From Deltaproteobacteria bacterium (GTDB lineage: Bacteria; Desulfobacterota; Syntrophorhabdia; Syntrophorhabdales; JANXAF01): 36,584 bases of DNA. Positions 35,596 to 36,105 of the stretch are shown in pieces. A program made the translations under genes and the position numbers. Location of the stretch: the NCBI GenBank assembly GCA_026417175.1, contig JAOADT010000006.1:69031-105614 (forward strand). Reading direction: 5' to 3'. A model generated the notes under the pieces. That model did no database searches. It was not told the DNA's origin and worked only from the letters and a program-made list of their open reading frames with translations. The first letter of the stretch is position 1. Each line of letters opens with the position of its first letter.

Positions 35596-36105
35596 ATGTA
35601 TACTTTCTTCATGAGAGATATAGAGTTTATGGAATTATGTTTAAGACTCGCTGAAGAGGCTTTTTTATCCGGTGAGGTGCCAGTTGGTGCAATTGTTGTG
35701 TCAAATGAAGAGGAGGTCGTTGGAAGAGGATACAACCAGACCATAACACTTCTAAAACCTTATGCACATGCCGAAATCTTAGCCATCTCAATGGCGACAG
35801 AGAAAATTGGAAATTACAGACTTAAGGATTGTACTCTCTTTGTTACCAAAGAACCTTGCATCATGTGTGCTGGCGCAATCTTAGAAGCGAGAATAAAAAG
35901 AGTTGTCTTCGGATGTTTCGACAGAAAAAGAGGCGCTTTCGGTTCGATGATAGATGTAAACTCCCTGCCTCTAAATCATAGGGTAGAGGTAACTGGCGGG
36001 GTATTAAAGGAAAAAAGCGAAAAACTCCTTAAGAATTTCTTCAAAATGAGGAGAGGTACCGAAGTGGCCATAACGGGGCCGACTCGAAATCGGCTGTACG
36101 CCTGA
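35596..36105 (+). CDS. tadA: tRNA-specific adenosine deaminase TadA
   Basis: This 169-residue zinc deaminase converts adenosine 34 of tRNA-Arg(ACG) to inosine. Zinc and catalytic residues are His58 and Glu60 (AHAE) and Cys88 and Cys91 (PCIMC). The normal family C-terminus falls near KNFFKMRR; the frame then continues through 18 more codons that lie inside the tRNA-Ser gene and ends at a TGA in the tRNA variable arm. Start choice is uncertain: the ATG at 35596 and the ATG at 35611 are both possible, and neither has a clear ribosome site. Confidence 0.92.
   Translation: MYTFFMRDIEFMELCLRLAEEAFLSGEVPVGAIVVSNEEEVVGRGYNQTITLLKPYAHAEILAISMATEKIGNYRLKDCTLFVTKEPCIMCAGAILEARIKRVVFGCFDRKRGAFGSMIDVNSLPLNHRVEVTGGVLKEKSEKLLKNFFKMRRGTEVAITGPTRNRLYA

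What the first reader, a model, noticed from the sequence alone, without database searches (positions are those of the whole stretch)
36050..36105. tadA reads into the tRNA-Ser gene and takes its stop codon from the tRNA variable arm
The normal TadA C-terminus ends almost exactly where the tRNA acceptor stem begins. The open frame has no stop there and runs through the acceptor, D and anticodon arms to a TGA in the variable arm. RNase P cleavage at 36050 would remove the tadA stop codon, so tRNA maturation and tadA translation of one transcript would exclude each other. A tRNA-modifying enzyme whose mRNA is destroyed by making a tRNA is a neat possible control loop.
Basis: partly seen in the sequence, partly recalled or inferred. 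Interest (0 to 1): 0.6.

Follow-up and report, generated by a model that had tools for sequence, protein, structure and literature searches.

The report
tadA ends inside a tRNA-Ser gene
In this bacterium and every relative of its order that could be checked, the gene for a tRNA-editing enzyme has no stop codon of its own and borrows one from inside the next gene, a serine tRNA, so a single RNA copy can be used whole as message or cut to give the tRNA, but not both; whether cells use this as a control is unknown.

Summary
The tadA frame (35596-36105) runs 56 nt into a sound, single-copy tRNA-Ser(CGA) gene (36050-36143) and stops at a TGA in the variable-arm loop. It is no sequencing error: all 33 analysable Syntrophorhabdales genomes show it. 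It recurs in other Thermodesulfobacteriota families, including single-contig genomes, and in Aminicenantes, a Nitrospirae bin and a Planctomycetota bin, in all three reading frames. The tRNA's first bases (GGAGAGG) complete TadA's conserved C-terminal Arg-Arg (FFxxRR). The remaining 16 residues are a mostly disordered tail.

Best explanation: tadA and tRNA-Ser are ancient close neighbours (median gap 16 nt where they do not overlap). tadA's stop was lost repeatedly because the tRNA supplies Arg-Arg and, usually, an in-frame stop. One transcript can then act as full-length tadA message or as pre-tRNA, since RNase P would cut between the first and second base of the codon for Arg152. That conflict follows from the anatomy but was not observed. 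Nothing shows it is used for control, and TadA's substrate is tRNA-Arg(ACG), not this tRNA.

The closest precedent is tRNA-Sec inside selB (Mukai 2021, PMC8124441), with the same proposed conflict. So this is a new variant of a known kind, broader and convergent; the control-loop claim is unproven.

The parts
35596..36105 (+). tadA open reading frame, 169 aa including the tRNA-encoded tail (true start may be 35596, 35611 or about 35629)
   Evidence: order-wide alignment; fold
36050..36143 (+). tRNA-Ser(CGA) gene, CCA encoded, only copy in the genome; anticodon 36085-36087
36050..36105 (+). 56-nt overlap: acceptor 5' strand, D arm, anticodon arm and half of the variable arm translated as (R)RGTEVAITGPTRNRLYA
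36037..36054 (+). codons for the conserved TadA C-terminal FFKMRR; 5 of the 6 bases of Arg152-Arg153 are tRNA bases 1-5
36095..36114 (+). variable arm of the tRNA
   Evidence: sequence and fold
36103..36105 (+). tadA stop codon TGA in the variable-arm loop, followed in frame by a second stop TAA 36106-36108
   Evidence: position conserved as TGA/TAA/TAG
34805..35584 (+). DUF72 gene, 11 nt upstream of tadA, same strand
   Evidence: order conserved in three genera of the family
32925..34808 (+). RNase R gene, first of the apparent rnr-DUF72-tadA-tRNA unit in this family

Best explanation
The 3' end of tadA and the 5' half of tRNA-Ser(CGA) are the same DNA. tadA and tRNA-Ser have long been immediate neighbours in this phylum and probably share a transcript, with the tRNA last in the unit. 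The stop codon of tadA was lost and the loss was tolerated because the tRNA supplies what the protein needs: GGAGAGG read after A or C gives Arg-Arg-Gly, which completes the conserved FFxxRR end of TadA, and a stop usually follows inside the tRNA. The extra residues are a tolerated tail. Each transcript then has one of two fates. Ribosomes can read to the variable arm, keeping the tRNA unfolded. Or the tRNA folds and RNase P cuts at 36049/36050, leaving a tadA message without stop that tmRNA and nucleases would clear. Shown here: overlap, conservation, recurrence, frames, Arg-Arg supply, disordered tail, presence of RNase P RNA and tmRNA. Inferred: shared transcript, competition, clearance. 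No regulatory benefit is claimed.
For: Order-wide overlap 33/33. Phylum survey: 107 tadA loci, 84 with tRNA-Ser within 600 nt downstream, 55 overlapping (41, 9 and 5 in the three frames), 29 with gaps of 1-252 nt, median 16. Frame-1 overlaps have A or C before the tRNA in 40 of 41 loci not chosen by pattern; the exception, L067, has its own RR upstream of the tRNA. The frame-0 group inside Syntrophorhabdales also has its own RR/KR upstream. At least 9 gains or losses of overlap on the TadA tree. All 41 frame-1 overlaps stop inside the tRNA, while 13 of 26 non-overlapping tRNA-Ser(CGA) lack a stop in that frame. Synonymous constraint starts at the tRNA and not upstream. C-terminal helix to residue 160, residues 161-169 pLDDT below 50. 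Single-contig genomes show overlap (L047 of G082, L058 of G242, L215 of G143, L220 of G401). RNase P RNA, tmRNA, single tRNA copy.
Against: No transcript data. A lineage-specific promoter inside tadA could make a separate tRNA precursor, which would ease the conflict. The stop excess in users may come from shared descent or from survival of only those overlaps that had a stop nearby. TadA is too short for a well-resolved tree (16 of 104 inner branches starred).
Confidence: 0.68

Rival explanations
1. A real control loop: tRNA maturation destroys the tadA message, so TadA level falls when RNase P capacity is high or translation is low, and selection keeps the overlap for this.
For: Overlap kept across the whole order, through a change of reading frame in one genus. 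Recurrence in several phyla. TadA and a tRNA are related in function, and in several lineages tadA is flanked by its own substrate tRNA-Arg(ACG). The same model was proposed for selB/tRNA-Sec (PMC8124441).
Against: tRNA-Ser(CGA) is not the TadA substrate. Overlap and 1-30 nt gaps form a continuum. All three frames and several end points occur. One family (f92) holds overlap in two frames and also a gap. No conserved extra structure: a competing hairpin at the window junction is not shared by most relatives.
Confidence: 0.15
2. Separate transcripts: the tRNA has its own promoter inside tadA, so overlap is only in DNA and the two RNAs do not compete much.
For: Many bacterial tRNA genes have their own promoters; the tRNA is needed in far larger amounts than TadA (general knowledge).
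Against: No sigma-70-like site on the + strand between 35604 and 36050 (a weak test). No synonymous constraint upstream of the tRNA across 33 genomes. Even with its own promoter, any transcript through tadA still carries the tRNA.
Confidence: 0.25
3. Artefact: a sequencing or assembly error hides a stop codon before the tRNA.
For: The window's genome is a draft of 97 contigs whose contig ends 441 bases after the tRNA.
Against: The same junction is in 33 independent genomes of the order and in single-contig genomes of other families.
Confidence: 0.01

Closest known systems
tRNA-Sec (selC) nested in or overlapping selB in Alphaproteobacteria, Gammaproteobacteria and Nitrospirae (Mukai 2021, PMC8124441)
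   Same: Same-strand protein frame runs into a complete tRNA gene; tRNA-encoded C-terminal extension; conserved stop inside the tRNA in Dyella/Luteibacter (residues 46-48); some relatives have a stop before the tRNA; same proposed choice between message and tRNA with a non-stop message as by-product.
   Different: Different gene and tRNA (tadA, tRNA-Ser CGA); a housekeeping editing enzyme; the tRNA bases encode part of the conserved Arg-Arg end and not only an extension; all three frames used; spread over more of the tree; no overlap with a downstream frame; SelB binds tRNA-Sec, whereas TadA does not act on tRNA-Ser(CGA).
tRNA genes overlapping or inside protein genes in animal mitochondria (for example tRNA-Lys in cox1 of Armadillidium vulgare, cited in PMC8124441)
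   Same: One transcript cannot give both intact message and tRNA.
   Different: Mitochondrial genome compaction; different enzymes; there tRNAs punctuate long transcripts.
Bacterial operons mixing message and tRNA (for example secG-leuU in E. coli; general knowledge)
   Same: tRNA at or near the 3' end of a coding unit, released by processing.
   Different: There the stop codon precedes the tRNA, so processing leaves the coding frame whole.

Membership tests
TadA (tRNA adenosine-34 deaminase) | Curated family score and HAE...PCxxC zinc site | tested here: met
   166.2 bits against cut-off 150; H58-A-E60 and P87-C-x-x-C91 invariant
TadA (tRNA adenosine-34 deaminase) | TadA fold with C-terminal helix ending FFxxRR | tested here: met
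   pLDDT 91.1; best PDB matches E. coli 1z3a and S. aureus 2b3j; alignment reaches the Arg-Arg region
Functional tRNA-Ser(CGA) | Cloverleaf, long variable arm, CGA anticodon, only such gene in the genome | tested here: met
Overlapping tRNA/protein gene of the selB-selC type | Same-strand protein frame enters a complete tRNA gene and is extended by it | tested here: met
Overlapping tRNA/protein gene of the selB-selC type | Trait conserved in relatives but not essential (some relatives have a stop before the tRNA) | tested here: met
   33/33 in the order; 29 non-overlapping neighbours elsewhere in the phylum
Overlapping tRNA/protein gene of the selB-selC type | Whole tRNA nested in the frame | tested here: not met
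   Window overlap is partial (stop at tRNA position 54). Met only in relatives L081, L083, L098, L093
Overlapping tRNA/protein gene of the selB-selC type | Protein and tRNA belong to one direct functional pair | tested here: not met
   TadA acts on tRNA-Arg(ACG), a separate gene; substrate choice from general knowledge
Overlapping tRNA/protein gene of the selB-selC type | tRNA processing represses full-length protein | not testable with these tools
   Needs RNA and protein data; hypothetical in PMC8124441 too

The most novel reading that the evidence does not exclude
The overlap is a selected switch found repeatedly in bacteria: ribosomes reading tadA and RNase P maturing tRNA-Ser compete for each transcript, so TadA output depends on how busy translation and tRNA processing are. 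It belongs to a wider, unrecognised class of tRNA-terminated bacterial genes.
Probability: 0.15. Interest if true: 0.8.

Novelty: new variant of a known kind. Interest (0 to 1): 0.55.

Why it matters
It is a deeply conserved and repeatedly evolved case of a housekeeping protein gene whose end is written in a tRNA. One stretch must code for a conserved protein end and also fold, be cut and work as tRNA-Ser. It gives a clean natural test of what happens when translation and tRNA maturation need the same RNA, and of non-stop rescue on a normal gene. It also shows how gene finders that cut or drop frames overlapping tRNAs would mis-annotate an enzyme that is essential in well-studied bacteria (general knowledge).

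Tried and rejected
Sequencing error: rejected by 33 relatives and by single-contig genomes. tRNA pseudogene or second copy: rejected, single intact copy. Order-wide hidden promoter in tadA: no synonymous constraint upstream of the tRNA. Junction hairpin as a switch: seen in the window, but most relatives fold the acceptor stem. RNase R in the same unit as a sign of non-stop clearance: only in the window's family, not in the rest of the order. General habit of this genome to overlap tRNAs: five other open frames entering tRNAs have no Pfam match and look spurious. The cross-phylum pattern scan demanded an Arg codon at the tRNA start, so its hits are not used as evidence for the Arg-Arg constraint; 42 of its 58 hits are tadA. 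Paper searches for a described tadA/tRNA-Ser overlap found none; the library lacks most subscription papers.

Full report
What is there. The frame 35596-36105 encodes TadA. tRNA-Ser(CGA) lies at 36050-36143 on the same strand. The frame has no stop before the tRNA. It passes through the acceptor 5' strand, the D arm and the anticodon arm and ends at TGA 36103-36105, tRNA positions 54-56, in the loop of the variable arm; a second in-frame stop (TAA) follows.

Not an error. TadA was sought in the family, order and phylum of the window's genome. Pattern hits with titles such as Syntrophorhabdaceae, Syntrophorhabdales and Syntrophorhabdus place the order as Syntrophorhabdales. All 33 order genomes with a readable junction overlap: 29 in the window's frame and 4 (one genus) in another. 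In the window's family, three genera stop at the same codon of the variable arm with TGA, TAA and TAG. Genomes in one contig from other families (G082, G242, G143, G401; loci L047, L058, L215, L220) show overlaps too.

How widespread. Of 107 tadA loci sampled in the phylum (Thermodesulfobacteriota), enriched for the order and for overlap-like hits, 84 have a tRNA-Ser within 600 nt downstream. Of these 55 overlap and 29 have gaps of 1-252 nt, median 16. Because of that enrichment the 55/84 share is not a phylum-wide rate. Overlaps use all three frames, and on a poorly resolved TadA tree overlap changes at least 9 times. One family (f92) holds overlap in two frames as well as a gapped arrangement. 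A pattern scan of 84,980 species found 58 places, of which 42 are tadA, including many Aminicenantes, a Nitrospirae bin and a Planctomycetota bin with tRNA-Ser(UGA). In three Aminicenantes loci the frame reads through the whole tRNA-Ser(CGA) and stops in the next tRNA-Ser(GGA).

Why it is tolerated. Solved TadA proteins align to the window protein up to residues 153-155, the Arg-Arg region. Here Arg152 is A plus tRNA bases 1-2, and Arg153 is tRNA bases 3-5. In 40 of 41 overlaps of this frame that were not chosen by pattern, the base before the tRNA is A or C, the two bases that give Arg; the exception, L067, has its own RR further upstream. The frame-0 genus carries RR/KR upstream as well. The tRNA therefore supplies the conserved end. 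In the model the C-terminal helix runs to residue 160 and residues 161-169 are disordered, so the rest of the tail looks passive. All 41 frame-1 overlaps stop inside the tRNA, whereas half of the non-overlapping tRNA-Ser(CGA) genes (13 of 26) have no stop in that frame. This suggests use of the stop, but shared descent and survival bias weaken it.

How it probably works. In the window's family the order is rnr-DUF72-tadA-tRNA, with the next gene in one relative pointing the other way, so the tRNA is probably last in one transcript. Synonymous constraint rises only at the tRNA, with no sign of an order-wide promoter in the rest of tadA, and no sigma-70-like site was found between 35604 and 36050 on the + strand except a terminator-like match at 35677 at background level. 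RNase P RNA and tmRNA are present. If one transcript is made, a ribosome reading to the variable arm keeps the tRNA unfolded, while RNase P cutting at 36049/36050 leaves a tadA message without stop, lacking both arginines. These steps are inferred. The general RNA fold does not show a conserved alternative structure.

Is it a control loop? Possible but unsupported. TadA's substrate is tRNA-Arg(ACG), a separate gene, and the continuum of gaps and frames fits repeated, tolerated stop loss between close neighbours.

Relation to known cases. Mukai 2021 (PMC8124441) described tRNA-Sec nested in or overlapping selB and proposed the same alternative fate with a non-stop message. The present case works alike in principle, but with another gene, another tRNA, a share in the conserved protein end, more frames and more phyla. 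No description of tadA/tRNA-Ser overlap was found in the paper library, which is incomplete.

Verdict. Observation confirmed; mutual exclusion of single transcripts plausible; control loop unproven. A new variant of a known kind, worth attention for its conservation and recurrence.

Noticed in passing
L081, L083, L091, L093, L094, L098, L101, L118, L125 (Aminicenantes and relatives), L075, L200, L204, L206, L210: The gene for tRNA-Arg(ACG), the substrate of TadA, lies directly upstream of tadA on the same strand. Of 131 tadA loci, all 14 upstream tRNA neighbours found are tRNA-Arg(ACG), giving tRNA-Arg(ACG)-tadA-tRNA-Ser in several lineages.
   Followed up: partly
L081, L083, L098: tadA frame reads through an entire tRNA-Ser(CGA) with its CCA and stops inside the following tRNA-Ser(GGA).
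   Followed up: partly
32925-36143: RNase R, DUF72, tadA and tRNA-Ser follow each other on one strand in all three genera of the window's family, but RNase R and DUF72 are not beside tadA in the other overlap loci checked.
   Followed up: partly
36144-36584 and other genomes (G030 C47, G005 C3, G014 C320): Contigs often end within a few hundred bases after this tRNA; a repeat or a mobile element using the tRNA 3' end as insertion site could be the cause.
   Followed up: no
L096, L099, L100, L106, L120, L124, L127, L129, L132: Pattern hits where no tadA frame enters the tRNA, only short open frames; background level of the pattern scan.
   Followed up: no
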